Shown here in pieces: positions 14,463 to 37,250 of a stretch of DNA of 64,000 nt. Every line of letters starts with the position of its first letter. Position 1 is the stretch's first letter. Both the position numbers and the translations under genes were made by a program. The DNA is taken from positions 62,001-126,000 of the forward strand of contig JAIORK010000029.1 in the NCBI GenBank assembly GCA_021108215.1, given 5' to 3'. A model generated the notes under the pieces. That model saw only the letters and a list, made by a program, of their open reading frames with translations. It was not told the origin of the DNA and made no database searches. This DNA is from a bacterium (lineage in GTDB: Bacteria; Oederibacteriota; JAAXVQ01; JAUVAV01).

Positions 14463-14615
14463 ATAAGACTCCTTAAATAAGACTATCTATTAAGTTTACC
14501 ATTGATTCTTTCATAATTAAGAATATAAAAATATATAGATATATGAGAAAATTAAAAAAATGGCCTAATGGTAAAGTGTTGAATTTTATGGACACAGTTT
14601 GATCGCAGGGTGGTC

Positions 14616-15983
14616 ATGATGATGAAAAAAATAATAGTTCATTTTGTGCTGTGTTTGCTGGTTTCAGCGGCGACCAGCCATGGTGCCACGACTTGGAAGT
14701 GGATTGCTTATGGAGATACCCGGACCAATGATATAGAACACCGGCAGGTACTTGATGCCATCCAAAACAGTTCCGCTGGTTATGCTTTTATTATCAATGT
14801 CGGCGATGTGGTGGAAAACGGCTGGAATCAGACGCAATGGGATACCTGGCAGGCAGCCTGTGATGATGAGCTGGGAGGGACCCACCAGACCCAGACGCCG
14901 CCGGCATATATGTCTGCGCCGGGAAATCATGATGATCTGGGGACTGGCGGACTTACCAATTGGAACACCTATCTTTTCGGTCAATATCAGCAGTATGGCA
15001 ATGACGGAAAATATTTTGTGTTTGATTATGCCAATGCCCGGTTTGTGGTTTTAAATTCCGAGGAATCACTCACGTCTTCCCAGTACACCCTGCTCATGCA
15101 GTCCATTGGAAATAATCCGCAAGAATGGCTGTTTGTTTTTTGGCACCGGCCTATTTTTGATTTTGGGCCCAAAGTCTATGAAGCAGCCATTCATTCAACC
15201 TGGGGTGTTCCTTTGTATCAAAATGGGTGTGATATTATTTTTACCGGGCATGCACATTATTATGTCAGAACTGAAAAATTAGGGCTGGACGGTAATCCCA
15301 ATCCACCCTTGGATGCGACTGCCGGCACAGTGCAAATTGTGACCGGGAATAGCGGGGCGCCATTGTATGCTGTCGATGAAAACCACGATAGTAATGGATA
15401 CATGGTGGCTTATTCATTTGATGAAGACCAGGCTGCATTTCACGGGTACACCGAGTTGAGTGTTACCGGGACGAGTATGGTGCTGCGGCATATTCGGGTT
15501 GATGGAACGGTGATGGATACGACGACATATACCGCAAACCCCAAGCCGCCGACTTTTACAGTAACACCTACACCGACTTTGACGAGTACGCCGACAAGTA
15601 GTGCTGCCAGTACACATGTGATTTTACCAGCAACCGATACGCCAACCCCGACGAATACCTATACACCAAGCCATATTCCGACATCCGCAGTTTCGCCGCC
15701 GCCAGTGGACAGTCGGGTTACGCGAGTCGTTTTACTGAGCAATCCGAGCAGAAGTATGGTGAAGTTTGTTTTACCCGGTAATATTATCGGTAAAGTGGAT
15801 ATCGGAATATTTAATATTACCGGTGAAAAAATAGCGGATTTAACCCACAAGAAAACGGTGAACAGTGCAGAAGTGTTGCGGTGGGAATGTGAGCACGTTA
15901 CTTCCGGGATCTATTTTGCCGTGATTAAAGTGGATACTGTATTCAAAGAAAGGCTGAAATTTGCGATTGGTAAATTACGCTGA
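14616..15983 (+). CDS. Secreted calcineurin-like metallophosphoesterase with PT linker and sorting-type C-terminus
   Basis: 455 aa; AGGG lies 5-8 nt before a cluster of three in-frame ATGs (14616-14624). A signal peptide ends near SHGA. Metal-binding motifs appear in order: YGDTR, NVGDVVENG, APGNHDD, FWHRP and FTGHAHYY, spread over residues ~35-215 as in purple-acid-phosphatase-like enzymes. Residues ~310-365 are a Thr/Pro linker. The last ~85 residues (VVLLSNPSRSMVKF ... IFNITGEKIADL ... TSGIYFAVIK) resemble the C-terminal domain of the propeller protein transcribed divergently from it. The substrate is unknown. The two divergent genes probably use the same export route. Confidence 0.87.
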   Translation: MMMKKIIVHFVLCLLVSAATSHGATTWKWIAYGDTRTNDIEHRQVLDAIQNSSAGYAFIINVGDVVENGWNQTQWDTWQAACDDELGGTHQTQTPPAYMSAPGNHDDLGTGGLTNWNTYLFGQYQQYGNDGKYFVFDYANARFVVLNSEESLTSSQYTLLMQSIGNNPQEWLFVFWHRPIFDFGPKVYEAAIHSTWGVPLYQNGCDIIFTGHAHYYVRTEKLGLDGNPNPPLDATAGTVQIVTGNSGAPLYAVDENHDSNGYMVAYSFDEDQAAFHGYTELSVTGTSMVLRHIRVDGTVMDTTTYTANPKPPTFTVTPTPTLTSTPTSSAASTHVILPATDTPTPTNTYTPSHIPTSAVSPPPVDSRVTRVVLLSNPSRSMVKFVLPGNIIGKVDIGIFNITGEKIADLTHKKTVNSAEVLRWECEHVTSGIYFAVIKVDTVFKERLKFAIGKLR

Positions 15984-33199: not shown

Positions 33200-33346
33200 G
33201 AGCCATGAAAATATGCGGTTTTTATTTTGTAAAAAAAGATGTCTTAAATAAACCCAGTTAGGGACTGGTCAAGTCTAAGAAATGGTATATAATAAAAGGG
33301 CGTTTTACAAATGTTCGATGCTGGAGAACCCCGGGAAGGAATTGTT

Positions 33347-34477
33347 ATGTTGTTGAAAAAATCTTTCTTTTTTACGGTTTTTCTTTTGTCGCTGTTTATC
33401 ATGTCGCCGGCGCTGTATGCCGCAACACCGGTTTATCGCTCTATTGGTCCGGAAATGAACGGGCCGCTGGCAACCGGCAGCAGTAATTTATTGACGATTA
33501 CCGGCACCAACGCAGGATTTACATTCGATCTGCCCGGCAATGTCGGGGTAGGTGATATCATTGTCTATGATTCCAACAATGACAGTCTGCTTGATGCCCG
33601 GGCATTTATTCAATCGCGCTCCGTTGCTTCAGTTTTCATAGTCCAGGATGAATCGGGCGGTACGCCGGTTGCAACAGTGTTTCCTGATGAAAACTGGCAA
33701 ATTTACCGGTCCTATACATCGCTCTTTGAAGCTGAGTGCGGTTCTGAAAACATGGGAATTCCTACTGCATTGAGAAATTTTGACGCAACCGCAGACGGAT
33801 GGAATCTCATTAGCGGAAACAGAGTACTGCATCTGGCCTGTTATGCCGATGCGGCGGATAACACACCGGTGGTTTTTGCCGGAGCATCCTGGACAACGGA
33901 TGCAACCCACTATGTCAGGATTTTTACCCCCAAAGACCCTACGGAAGTCGGCATAAGCCAGCGTCATGATGGCAAGTGGAATAATAGTGCCTACCGTATG
34001 ATTACCAACGATGCCACCTGCATTTATTTTCAGATTGATTATTTTCGAATAGAAGGACTTCAATTTAATATCAGCACGGTATCCAGTGTTTCGCGCAAAT
34101 GCGTTAATTTGGAGACACCCGGTACTAGTGAAATTTATATTTCTCATTCCATTTTTTCCGGAACCGCGACAGATCAGAACATGCATGCCGGTATCACACT
34201 GTATAATTCCGGCAATGGACTTATATTTGTCTGGAACAATATTTTTTATAATTTTGACCGGTCCGGAACCAATTGGGTGGCTGCACTTGAGATTGATGAT
34301 TCGCAGTTTACAGCACATATTCTAAATAATACCTTTGTGGATTCCTACCGGGGACTCCAGCAAAATTCCGGAATAGTTTATGCAATGAATAATATTGCAC
34401 AGGGGTGTAGCGACGGGTTTTCAGGCATATTTGATGTCACATCAGGTCTGGTGACGCCCCCGGACCCAATGCGTTGA
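33347..34477 (+). CDS. Secreted beta-helix protein, N-terminal part (frameshifted)
   Basis: 376 aa from the ATG at 33347 with GGAAGG upstream. A signal peptide (FFFTVFLLSLFIMSPALYA) starts it. The rest is beta-rich with Asn/Gly/Ser turns (YSNGNGL-like, VWNNIFYNF, AHILNNTFVDSY, VYAMNNIAQGCS), as in right-handed parallel beta-helix surface proteins. The frame stops at 34475-34477, but the next frame continues the same protein (APGPNALNNSIVAFADYPG, a pattern usual for this family). A missing base near 34445-34464, possibly in the C5 run at 34457, explains the split. A TATAAT box lies at 33289-33294. Confidence 0.75.
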   Translation: MLLKKSFFFTVFLLSLFIMSPALYAATPVYRSIGPEMNGPLATGSSNLLTITGTNAGFTFDLPGNVGVGDIIVYDSNNDSLLDARAFIQSRSVASVFIVQDESGGTPVATVFPDENWQIYRSYTSLFEAECGSENMGIPTALRNFDATADGWNLISGNRVLHLACYADAADNTPVVFAGASWTTDATHYVRIFTPKDPTEVGISQRHDGKWNNSAYRMITNDATCIYFQIDYFRIEGLQFNISTVSSVSRKCVNLETPGTSEIYISHSIFSGTATDQNMHAGITLYNSGNGLIFVWNNIFYNFDRSGTNWVAALEIDDSQFTAHILNNTFVDSYRGLQQNSGIVYAMNNIAQGCSDGFSGIFDVTSGLVTPPDPMR

Positions 34478-35295
34478 ATAATTCAATTGTTGCCTTTGCC
34501 GATTATCCGGGACGTGATTTTCATCTGGCTCCGGGTGATATCAGTGCGAGAGATAATGGGATGAATTTGAGCGGCTACACGCCAATGCCATTTACAGATG
34601 ATATTGACAGAGAGATTCGGTCAATTAATTGGGATATCGGGGCTGACGAGGAATATCCCATTCCAACGCCAACACCGACTGTAACAGTGTCTTTCACGCC
34701 GACATTATCACCGACGGTGACCGCTTCAGCCAGCGCGACACCCTCACCCACGTTTTCGCCGACGGTGACCGTGTCCGCCAGCGCGACACCTTCACCCACG
34801 TTTTCGTCGACCCCAATATCGCCGATGACCGCAACAGACACACCCACACCGCTATTGACATCAACAGACACACCCACCTTGACGGAAACCCCGGATTATT
34901 CACCAACGATTACATCCACGGTAACGCCCTATCATTCGTCGACACAGACACCGAGTATAACCGTCACGTCGGTTGCGACATCGACTTCAACCGCTGTTCC
35001 TGAACCAAGTATAACCTCGGTGCGTATCCGGAACAATGTGATTAAAGCTGGGGGCAATCAAGGGATGGCGATTGATGTGCCGCTTGATCATGCCCAGCAC
35101 GTTTCCATTAGAATTTATAACCAGCGCGGAGAACTTATGACCGTTATTTCAGATCAGGAACAGGAATCCGGGATCTTTCAGGCAGTCTGGCAAGGTAAAA
35201 ACGCGAGTGGTTCTCCGGTTCGCTCCGGTGTTTACCTTATTTATATAAAAACAGATAATATTAATCTCAAAAAGAAAGTGGCGGTTATTCGCTGA
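34474..35295 (+). CDS. Continuation of the beta-helix protein: PT-rich linker and sorting-type C-terminal domain
   Basis: Frame fragment joined to 33347-34477 by a 1-nt shift; it has no ribosome site of its own. It carries the end of the beta-helix (DFHLAPGDISARDNGMNLSG, WDIGADEE), a Thr/Ser/Pro-rich linker of ~100 residues with repeated units (TASASATPSPTFSPTVT), and a final ~90-aa domain (VSIRIYNQRGELMTVI ... SPVRSGVYLIYIKTDN) like those ending the proteins at 12588 and 14616. Restoring one base would give a secreted protein of ~650 aa. The stop overlaps the ATG of the PorV-like gene by 1 nt. Confidence 0.7.
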   Translation: MNNSIVAFADYPGRDFHLAPGDISARDNGMNLSGYTPMPFTDDIDREIRSINWDIGADEEYPIPTPTPTVTVSFTPTLSPTVTASASATPSPTFSPTVTVSASATPSPTFSSTPISPMTATDTPTPLLTSTDTPTLTETPDYSPTITSTVTPYHSSTQTPSITVTSVATSTSTAVPEPSITSVRIRNNVIKAGGNQGMAIDVPLDHAQHVSIRIYNQRGELMTVISDQEQESGIFQAVWQGKNASGSPVRSGVYLIYIKTDNINLKKKVAVIR

Positions 35296-37250
35296 TGGTG
35301 TCAAAAACGATTCGGATAAAGCGCCAAGTCGGGCTGATGACTGTGCTGTTACTTGCGGCATTCCTGGGGAGACCTGCGAACGGGACGGCCTCGAGTGGTG
35401 CTGAGTTTTTACGGCTGGATATTCCGGCGCGGGCCGGTGCATTATCTGCCGGGTGTGCTGATTTTGTTGAGCTGGACATCTACAACCGGAATCCTTCCGG
35501 ATTGGCCGGGAAACTCCATCCTGAAATTGCATTTACACATTTTATTGCGTTTGATGAATTTGTTTATGAACAGTTGGATGCCGCTTACCCGAATTGGCTG
35601 GGCGGTACTTGGTCAGGCCGTCTGTTTTATGCCTCGGGTGCTGATTTTACAGAGTATGATGATCAAGGCATGCGTGTCGGCACGATTGATTATCACGATT
35701 TTCTTTTACATCTTACCTATTCGCATGTTGTCGGGAAAGACGTTGAGGCGGGCGTGGGACTCAAAGTTCTGGAAAGCCGTTTGGATGAGTATTCCAGCAT
35801 CGGTGCAGCGCTGGATATGGGTGTGCGGTATCGTACGCCATTGCGCTGGCTGGCATTGGGTTTGGCAATGCAAAATGTGGGTGCCCGGACGGCATTTATT
35901 AGTGAGGCTGATCCGTTGCCCATGCAGTTGGTGGCAGGCGTTGGGTTGTTTTTTTCCTTGTATGAAGGACATCGGGTGAAAATCCTGGCTGATTATACTC
36001 AGCCGCTGGGTCTTGAAGAAGATGGTTATGCAACGGCAGGTTTGGAGTATGGTTTTTTAAAAATGCTGTTTTTGCGAGGGGGATATCGTTTTAAAAATGA
36101 ATTAGGCGAGCTTTCGCTGGGGGCCGGTTTTAGATTGGCAAATATTGGATTGGATTATGCCTATCAACCGTTTTCAAACCTGGGGATTGCCCATCGTTTT
36201 ACGCTTTCGTACGTTTTTCTGCAGCAGGAAAAAAAGGCGGTGCCGCCATCAGGTGAGAAAGCGCCCGGCCGGCATGCCAAAGTCAGGGAATTAAGAGAGC
36301 TCCCGCGACATTTTGAGAGTGCGGTTACCTTTAAAACACCGAAAGTGGACCCGCGTATCAAGGACTGGCGTTTTGAAATTCGCGACCAGAAAGGAAATAT
36401 GGTCAAAAGCATCACAGGGATGGGGAAACCACCGGACTATCTCAAATGGGACGGGAAAAATCAGCAGGGTCGCCTCATGCCGAAAAAAAATCAATATCAG
36501 CTTATCTTTAAGGCGGAAGGTAAGCCGGCGGCTTCCCGGGAGATTCCGGCATTTCAAACACCGCGGCGGTTGTACTTTAAAGACGGCAGCATTTTAGAAC
36601 CGGAAGTACTCTTTCAACTGGACAAGGATTATCCGATTGCCCAATGGACCCTGCAAATGGTTGAAAAGAAAACGCAAAAAACGGTGCGTACTCTGACGGG
36701 CAAGGATAGATTGCCCGGGAAAATACTTTGGGACGGCAAAGACAGCCAGGGGCAAGTGGCGGCGACAAACCGGCGGTATTCTTATGTGCTTCAGTTGGTT
36801 TATGCCGACCGTACCAGTGTTCTTTTGTCGGGGAAAATCAGATCCATTCCGGTTCGGTTGTTTGCTACCCAGACAGGTGGGAAAGGTATCTTGATTCCGG
36901 GCATATTATTTGATTTTGACAGCGCTGCCTTCAAACCTGCAATGATGGATAAAATATTGGCTGCCAATACGATTCTTGAAAAATATCCCGAGCGGTCCAA
37001 GCTGGTTTGTGCAGGTCACTCTGATGATGTCGGCGGTGTGCGTTATAACCAACAATTGTCTGCCATGCGGGCTGCCATGGTCGGGGATTATATCCTGAAA
37101 AAAACGGGTGTTGCATCTGACCGGGTGCGCAGCCAAGGCTATGGAAAATCCCGTCCGGTGAGCCGCGCCAATACGGAAAAAGCCCGTGCCTGCAACCGGC
37201 GGGTTGAAATCAGGATATTTTTTCCTGATGTTGAAGAACAGTCCAAATAA
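35295..37250 (+). CDS. PorV/PorQ-like outer-membrane protein with Ig-like repeats and OmpA domain
   Basis: 651 aa; the ATG overlaps the preceding stop (TGATG), so translation is coupled. After a signal peptide, residues ~33-300 match the PorV/PorQ family (LRLDIPARAGALSAGCADFV, YNRNPSGLA, AAYPNWLGGTWSGRLFYASG), a beta-barrel family that includes type IX secretion components. Residues ~345-500 have two FlgD-like Ig repeats (IRDQKGNMVKSITGMG ... LKWDGKNQQG). Residues ~535-651 are an OmpA/MotB peptidoglycan-binding domain (GILFDFDSAAFKPAMMDKIL, AGHSDDVGGVRYNQQLSAMR, NRRVEIRIFF). It probably anchors an outer-membrane export component to the wall. Confidence 0.85.
   Translation: MVSKTIRIKRQVGLMTVLLLAAFLGRPANGTASSGAEFLRLDIPARAGALSAGCADFVELDIYNRNPSGLAGKLHPEIAFTHFIAFDEFVYEQLDAAYPNWLGGTWSGRLFYASGADFTEYDDQGMRVGTIDYHDFLLHLTYSHVVGKDVEAGVGLKVLESRLDEYSSIGAALDMGVRYRTPLRWLALGLAMQNVGARTAFISEADPLPMQLVAGVGLFFSLYEGHRVKILADYTQPLGLEEDGYATAGLEYGFLKMLFLRGGYRFKNELGELSLGAGFRLANIGLDYAYQPFSNLGIAHRFTLSYVFLQQEKKAVPPSGEKAPGRHAKVRELRELPRHFESAVTFKTPKVDPRIKDWRFEIRDQKGNMVKSITGMGKPPDYLKWDGKNQQGRLMPKKNQYQLIFKAEGKPAASREIPAFQTPRRLYFKDGSILEPEVLFQLDKDYPIAQWTLQMVEKKTQKTVRTLTGKDRLPGKILWDGKDSQGQVAATNRRYSYVLQLVYADRTSVLLSGKIRSIPVRLFATQTGGKGILIPGILFDFDSAAFKPAMMDKILAANTILEKYPERSKLVCAGHSDDVGGVRYNQQLSAMRAAMVGDYILKKTGVASDRVRSQGYGKSRPVSRANTEKARACNRRVEIRIFFPDVEEQSK

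What the first reader, a model, noticed from the sequence alone, without database searches (positions are those of the whole stretch)
34474..37250. Sorting-type C-terminal domain protein coupled to a PorV-OmpA protein
Three proteins in this window (12588, 14616, 33347-35295) end in PT-rich linkers and similar FlgD/T9SS-like domains. The third is translationally coupled (TGATG) to a PorV/PorQ-like barrel. In type IX secretion PorV carries such C-terminal domains to the sortase. This points to a T9SS-like or related export route outside Bacteroidota.
Basis: partly seen in the sequence, partly recalled or inferred. Interest (0 to 1): 0.68.

Follow-up and report, generated by a model that had tools for sequence, protein, structure and literature searches.

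The report
Private carrier barrels for secreted proteins
Many secreted proteins of this bacterium come with their own private outer-membrane barrel, encoded next door, that probably carries and holds them at the cell surface; [quoted passage not shown]

Summary
It ends in a P/T/S-rich linker plus a C-terminal Ig domain, and its stop overlaps (TGATG) the start of a PorV-family barrel fused to FlgD-like Ig domains and OmpA (35295-37250). It is one case of a genome-wide pattern. The genome has a SprA/Sov homologue, 78 type A sorting-domain places and 45 PorV-family sites. A sorting-domain gene lies directly upstream of PorV at 31/45, 12/29 and 22/38 sites in three genomes of the phylum, against 1 per genome downstream. 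Barrel and sorting-domain distances co-vary. This pair is kept in 6 of 6 testable relatives. C25 (PorU-type) peptidase is found in 4 of 40 genomes, none passing the PorU cut-off, and GldM in 0 of 40; a Bacteroidota control gave GldM at once. Best reading: a SprA-PorV, T9SS-like export route in which many cargos have a dedicated PorV carrier, probably kept as anchor. Known parallels: SprF/type B CTD and PorQ/PorZ. Export, specificity and anchoring are inferred, not shown. The phylum could not be named.

The parts
33311..34477 (+). N-terminal part of the cargo gene: signal peptide (from ATG 33347) and beta-helix-like passenger
   Evidence: ORF list; homologous to the N-terminal part of two in-frame paralogues, 36% and 38% identity; no Pfam family
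34435..35295 (+). C-terminal part of the same cargo gene in another frame (first start codon TTG 34474): end of passenger, P/T/S-rich linker, C-terminal Ig domain
   Evidence: aligns to the same paralogues downstream of the first part
34657..35007 (+). P/T/S-rich linker (limits read by eye)
   Evidence: 0.67 P/T/S in the 95 residues before the C-terminal domain
35008..35292 (+). C-terminal Ig domain, FlgD-like variant of the type A sorting domain
   Evidence: FlgD_ig 36.2 bits; TIGR04183 23.9 bits, cut-off 23; model pLDDT 89.3, best matches PorU CTD Z 10.7, translocon-bound NucA CTD Z 9.7, FlgD Z 8.9
35293..35297 (+). TGATG stop/start overlap coupling cargo to the PorV-family gene
35295..37250 (+). 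PorV-family protein fused to FlgD-like Ig domains and OmpA, 651 aa
   Evidence: NF033709 115.3 bits, cut-off 90
35394..36218 (+). PorV-family beta-barrel (residues 34-308)
   Evidence: profile of 60 paired barrels finds PorV of the SprA translocon, 6h3i_F, E 6.7e-37
36354..36500 (+). first FlgD-like Ig domain (residues 354-402)
36582..36854 (+). second FlgD-like Ig repeat (about residues 430-520)
   Evidence: read from the sequence by likeness to the first; no family hit of its own
36906..37199 (+). OmpA domain, presumed peptidoglycan-binding (residues 538-635)
   Evidence: PF00691 53.9 bits
12588..14462 (-). unlinked secreted protein with type A sorting domain
   Evidence: TIGR04183 41.7 bits; no PorV site near it
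14610..15983 (+). unlinked metallophosphatase with a weaker type A-like C-terminal domain

Best explanation
The two genes are a cargo and its own carrier in a SprA-based, type IX-like secretion route. The beta-helix cargo is exported by Sec (signal peptide). Its C-terminal Ig domain docks on the loops of its partner PorV barrel at the SprA translocon and leaves with it. Because no PorU sortase is found, the domain is probably not cleaved but stays on the barrel. Here the barrel is tied to the cell wall by its own OmpA domain, so carrier and anchor are one protein. The genome multiplies this module about thirty times. Shown: gene structure, family membership of the parts, conserved and genome-wide pairing, co-variation of barrel and sorting domain, presence of SprA, failure to detect PorU and GldM. 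Inferred: export through SprA, binding specificity, lack of cleavage, anchoring.
For: SprA homologue 228.5 bits, cut-off 200; SprA profile finds 6h3i_A at 2.4e-27; found in 36 of 40 genomes. 78 type A places, 75 marked over cut-off. Sorting domain directly upstream of PorV on the same strand at 31/45, 12/29, 22/38 sites, downstream 1 each, opposite strand 1, 0, 0 (with curated models only: 26, 0 and 1 of 45). Stop/start overlap in 14 of 30 own pairs. Barrel and CTD distances co-vary: r 0.65, p 1e-4, 25 own pairs; r 0.396, null maximum 0.203, 60 pairs in three genomes; nearest neighbours agree in 36 of 60, null maximum 9. PorV-Ig-Ig-OmpA orthologues have a CTD gene upstream in 6 of 6 testable relatives. 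Paired CTDs are a different class: WxG motif 21/26 against 11/58, YPNP-type motif 12/26 against 53/58. The same beta-helix passenger occurs elsewhere with an unlinked CTD of the other class. In F. johnsoniae the CTD sets the destination (PMC12618676, Discussion), and CTDs are held by PorV loops inside SprA (PMC10994853, passages).
Against: Most co-variation can come from whole operons duplicating and being inherited together: restricted to pairs with unrelated passengers r falls to 0.246 (null maximum 0.200). By sequence the paired CTDs lie nearer to FlgD (1.2e-10) than to PorU CTD (2.5e-8). OmpA is not a mark of paired barrels: 9 of 65 paired, 15 of 47 unpaired, p 0.034 the wrong way. 14 of 45 own PorV sites have no CTD upstream. 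G020, 99% complete, has 21 matches to the window PorV protein but no SprA match. The window's own cargo gene is frame-split. PorU and GldM may be too diverged to see. No complex could be modelled; the single-sequence barrel model failed, pLDDT 33.
Confidence: 0.6

Rival explanations
1. The route is T9SS-like, but the PorV proteins are interchangeable carriers. Cargo and PorV lie together only for joint expression and dosage and duplicate as operons, with no cognate recognition.
For: In Bacteroidota one PorV takes all type A CTDs (PMC12618676 abstract) through a plastic pocket (PMC10994853 passages). Co-variation drops to r 0.246 when related passengers are removed. Dozens of CTDs have no adjacent PorV.
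Against: A distinct CTD class is linked to PorV. Pairs persist across families and, in part, with unrelated passengers: 9 of 36 agreeing nearest neighbours have unrelated passengers. A pooled carrier would not need dozens of copies; a Bacteroidota genome has 6 PorV places against 150 scored CTDs.
Confidence: 0.25
2. A complete T9SS is present, with PorU, GldL/M and ring proteins too diverged for the curated models. The pairs then feed an ordinary sortase.
For: SprA itself passes its cut-off in only 3 of 40 genomes in the genome search, so other parts may have drifted below detection. The own genome has one C25 protein with a type A CTD. GldK, GldL, GldN, SprE and PorZ were not searched genome-wide.
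Against: GldM gives 290.9 bits in a Bacteroidota control and nothing at E 0.001 in 40 genomes. The C25 model works here but finds the domain in 4 of 40, and the one in this genome scores about 42 bits on PorU, cut-off 420.
Confidence: 0.3
3. The Ig domains are ordinary FlgD-like modules with no sorting role: the cargo stays periplasmic and the barrel is a FadL-type transporter or peptidoglycan-linked porin working with it.
For: FlgD_ig is the best Pfam match of the cargo domain and also occurs inside PorV-family proteins and a 5960-residue protein. Distant FadL-family structures match the barrel profile.
Against: In 84 of 100 places the domain ends within 25 residues of the C-terminus. The linked and unlinked CTD profiles align at 99.8%. 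The unlinked profile's best structures are T9SS CTDs. The PorV match is 6.7e-37 against 1.5e-7 for the next FadL-type protein. The model's best matches are PorU and translocon-bound CTDs.
Confidence: 0.1

Closest known systems
PorP/SprF shuttles with cognate type B CTD substrates, with PorE in some operons (F. johnsoniae, P. gingivalis; PMC9143113, PMC12618676)
   Same: Operon of substrate plus its own FadL-type barrel; in some operons a peptidoglycan-binding OmpA partner; CTD kept as surface anchor.
   Different: Here the barrel is PorV-family and the CTD type A/FlgD-like. No protein passes the PorP/SprF cut-off in 40 genomes. The OmpA domain is fused to the barrel.
PorQ-PorZ pair of P. gingivalis (PMC10202324, passages)
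   Same: A CTD kept on a PorV-like barrel; the review proposes that cognate PorV-like barrels protect the CTD from cleavage.
   Different: There one pair, here about thirty per genome with varied passengers. The window proteins fall well below the PorQ (87.2, cut-off 220) and PorZ (19.6, cut-off 260) models.
SprA-PorV translocon of Bacteroidota T9SS (PDB 6h3i, 8glk)
   Same: SprA and PorV homologues recognised by sequence; type A CTD.
   Different: Many PorV copies; no GldM found and PorU model not passed.
PorE of the T9SS
   Same: OmpA-type peptidoglycan anchor linked to a T9SS barrel.
   Different: Separate protein there; here a domain of the barrel protein.
FlgD hook-cap Ig domain
   Same: Sequence and fold of the C-terminal domain.
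   Different: Sits at the C-terminus of secreted proteins beside PorV; FlgD whole-protein models score far below cut-off (34.3, cut-off 230).

Membership tests
Type IX secretion system | SprA/Sov outer-membrane translocon | tested here: met
   TIGR04189 228.5 bits, cut-off 200; profile finds 6h3i_A at 2.4e-27; 36 of 40 genomes at E 0.001, 3 of 40 over cut-off in the genome search
Type IX secretion system | PorV-family carrier | tested here: met
   NF033709 115.3 bits, cut-off 90; 6h3i_F 6.7e-37
Type IX secretion system | substrates with type A C-terminal sorting domain | tested here: met
   78 places, 75 marked over cut-off, in the own genome; the window's paired cargo only just, 23.9 bits, cut-off 23
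Type IX secretion system | PorU C25 sortase | tested here: not met
   0 of 40 over the PorU cut-off; C25 domain in 4 of 40
Type IX secretion system | GldL/GldM (PorL/PorM) motor | tested here: not met
   GldM 0 of 40, control genome 290.9 bits; GldL not searched; divergence cannot be excluded
Type IX secretion system | GldK/GldN ring, SprE | not tested
PorP/SprF - type B CTD pairs | barrel of the PorP/SprF family | tested here: not met
   TIGR03519 0 of 40 genomes over cut-off, best 65.4 of 90.55; PF11751 matches 2 of 45 own PorV-family proteins weakly
PorP/SprF - type B CTD pairs | substrate gene next to its barrel gene | tested here: met
   31/45, 12/29, 22/38 sites
PorQ-PorZ | equivalog models of PorQ and PorZ | tested here: not met
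   87.2 of 220 and 19.6 of 260 bits
FlgD hook cap | whole-protein FlgD models | tested here: not met
   best 34.3 of 230 bits

The most novel reading that the evidence does not exclude
A whole phylum uses a type IX-like translocon (SprA) without PorU sortase and without the GldL/M rotary motor. Instead of one recycled PorV it makes dozens of private PorV barrels that capture one cargo each and remain its permanent, partly peptidoglycan-tied anchor, so each secretion event would consume a carrier.
Probability: 0.33. Interest if true: 0.85.

Novelty: new variant of a known kind. Interest (0 to 1): 0.7.

Why it matters
Papers describe the T9SS as confined to Bacteroidota or, at most, possible in related FCB phyla, with one PorV serving all type A substrates, a PorU sortase and a GldL/M motor (PMC12618676 abstract and introduction passage; PMC11285876 passage; PMC10202324 passages). 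A lineage that keeps the translocon and sorting domain, multiplies the carrier and shows no detectable PorU or GldM would help separate the ancestral core of the system from later additions. It would also raise the question of what powers export without the known motor. The pairs give a natural set of matched CTD-barrel interfaces for working out recognition.

Tried and rejected
FlgD-only reading: rejected because unlinked CTDs of the same genome are clear type A domains and the two profiles align, and the CTD model's best matches are T9SS CTDs; Ig folds are common, so the fold alone proves little.

OmpA fusion as the mark of paired barrels: tested and not borne out (9 of 65 paired against 15 of 47 unpaired).

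Naming the phylum: the one genome-contig scan returned only an OmpA match in a Saprospiraceae MAG; no other named route was open. From the relatives list (14 families repeated among 40 genomes) I infer a small phylum, hence not Bacteroidota; this is inference. A paper search on one candidate phylum name from memory (Goldbacteria) gave nothing on its secretion.

SprA single-sequence search of the PDB found nothing relevant; the seven-sequence profile did. Structure of the PorV-OmpA protein from one sequence failed, pLDDT 33, and was not used. In one search I translated the second cargo frame from the wrong base; corrected. In one search minus-strand loci were read on one strand only; repeated on both.

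Rows dropped: one search used 25 of 26 pairs (one split barrel); one search used 60 of 64 distinct pairs (barrel pieces under 200 residues left out); one search used 45 of 64 candidate unlinked CTDs, mostly lower-scoring ones left out by eye; A5 holds 29 paired cargos plus only the first part of the window's cargo. In one search the table was cut, so CTD places of G012 and the control genome are not all listed.

Literature: searches found no account of multiplied PorV paired with type A CTDs; the library holds open-licence papers only, and I read abstracts, passages or single sections, not whole texts.
Full report
What is there. At 35295-37250(+) lies a 651-residue PorV-family protein: barrel (NF033709 115.3 bits, cut-off 90), one FlgD_ig match and a second similar repeat, and an OmpA domain. 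Its start overlaps the stop of the gene upstream, TGATG. The upstream gene is a secreted beta-helix-like protein with a signal peptide, a P/T/S-rich linker and a C-terminal Ig domain, but it is split into two frames: 33311-34477 and a frame open from 34435 to 35295. Two in-frame paralogues in the same genome align to both parts, so it is one gene with a frame change, either real or an assembly error. Two further window proteins carry the linker plus C-terminal domain and are not next to a PorV gene.

The C-terminal domain. By Pfam the window domain is FlgD_ig (36.2 bits, cut-off 27); it reaches the type A sorting model only just (23.9, cut-off 23). Elsewhere in the genome the same search finds 78 type A places in all, 75 marked over cut-off; 84 of 100 merged FlgD_ig/type A places end within 25 residues of the C-terminus, many with classical YPNP...GIY...K sequences. 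Profiles of PorV-linked (64 sequences, three genomes) and unlinked (45 sequences) domains align with 99.8% probability. The unlinked profile finds T9SS CTD structures first; the linked one finds FlgD first (1.2e-10), then PorU CTD (2.5e-8). The model of the window domain (pLDDT 89.3) matches PorZ best by Foldseek and PorU CTD by VIA-align (Z 10.7, rmsd 2.4, 86 aligned), translocon-bound NucA CTD Z 9.7 (rmsd 2.1, 75 aligned), FlgD Z 8.9 (rmsd 2.8, 79 aligned); many unrelated Ig domains score near 9.

A genome-wide pattern. The genome has 47 PorV-family pieces, 45 sites. With curated models a sorting domain lies within 400 nt upstream on the same strand at 26 of 45, downstream at 0, on the opposite strand at 1. 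With a profile built from this genome's domains: 31 of 45 here, 12 of 29 in G012 and 22 of 38 in G017, two genomes of other families of the phylum; downstream 1 in each; opposite strand 1, 0, 0. Stop and start overlap in 14 of 30 own pairs, 1 of 12 and 6 of 22 in the others. A Saprospiraceae genome used as Bacteroidota yardstick has 6 PorV places against 150 scored sorting domains.

Conservation of this pair. Full-length PorV-Ig-Ig-OmpA relatives (35-43% identity) occur in all seven genomes of the same family or order searched. In 6 of 6 loci where upstream DNA exists, a gene ending in a matching sorting domain precedes them; in the seventh the contig ends.

Co-variation. Distances among barrels and among linked sorting domains correlate: r 0.65, p 1e-4, for 25 own pairs; r 0.396 against a null maximum of 0.203 for 60 pairs in three genomes, with nearest neighbours agreeing in 36 of 60 against at most 9. 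Much of this is inheritance of whole operons: leaving out related passengers, r is 0.246 against a null maximum of 0.200. Linked domains are a distinct class: WxG motif in 21 of 26 against 11 of 58, YPNP-type in 12 of 26 against 53 of 58. The window's passenger family occurs elsewhere in this genome with an unlinked, YPNP-class domain, which fits the view that the domain sets the address.

The machinery. SprA: own protein 228.5 bits, cut-off 200; profile finds F. johnsoniae SprA, 2.4e-27; found in 36 of 40 genomes, though G020 (99% complete) lacks a match. PorU: 0 of 40 over its cut-off; C25 peptidase domain in 4 of 40, the own one in an 883-residue protein that itself ends in a type A domain, so it may be a cargo. 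GldM: 0 of 40, while the control gives 290.9 bits. PorP/SprF: 0 of 40 over cut-off. GldK, GldL, GldN, SprE and PorZ were not searched genome-wide.

Fusions. Pfam finds OmpA on 13 and FlgD_ig on 8 of 45 own PorV-family proteins. OmpA is not enriched in linked barrels (9 of 65 against 15 of 47 in three genomes), so wall-tying cannot be the general rule for pairs. The linked cargos are varied: subtilases, putative amidases, Kelch-type propellers, Ig-like repeats.

Mechanism. In F. johnsoniae a type A domain is gripped by PorV loops and SprA together, and PorV is pulled out with its cargo (PMC10994853, passages). Type B domains use their own SprF barrels, some with PorE in the operon, and stay anchored (PMC9143113 Discussion; PMC12618676 Discussion). 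PorZ stays on PorQ, and a review proposes that cognate PorV-like barrels shield a CTD from cleavage (PMC10202324 passages). The simplest reading of this locus is the same logic built on PorV: one cargo, one barrel, no detectable sortase, and here a built-in OmpA anchor in place of PorE. Gene structure, families, pairing and co-variation are shown; export, specificity and anchoring are inferred.

Membership. It works like a T9SS carrier module, but I do not file it as a canonical T9SS, because PorU and GldM were tested and not met. It is a new variant of a known kind. The phylum could not be named here; that it is not Bacteroidota is inferred from the small size of the phylum in the relatives list.

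Noticed in passing
window 34435-34477: Frame change inside the cargo gene near a run of five C (34457-34461); could be an assembly error, a real break or recoding.
   Followed up: partly
L083 (G000:C38:15656-16461): A PorV-family gene split into two frames (134 and 516 residues), with a sorting-domain gene upstream.
   Followed up: no
L073 (G000:C32:147557-166862): A protein of at least 5960 residues with many internal FlgD_ig repeats.
   Followed up: no
L101, L052 (G000:C53, C16): Near-identical type A sorting domains on several large proteins, some at contig ends; looks like a recent repeat family.
   Followed up: no
L188, L189, L190 (G022:C90, G036:C162, G034:C49): In family f12 a PorP/SprF-like barrel (63-65 bits, below cut-off) lies some 6-9 kb from the SprA gene.
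   Followed up: no
alignment A6 (45 own PorV-family proteins): 3 of 45 also match the phosphonate-type periplasmic binding protein family and 6 match TPR_2.
   Followed up: no
L184 (G000:C28:99545-100666): A C25 (gingipain/PorU-type) peptidase with a type A sorting domain; C25 is seen in 4 of 40 genomes.
   Followed up: partly
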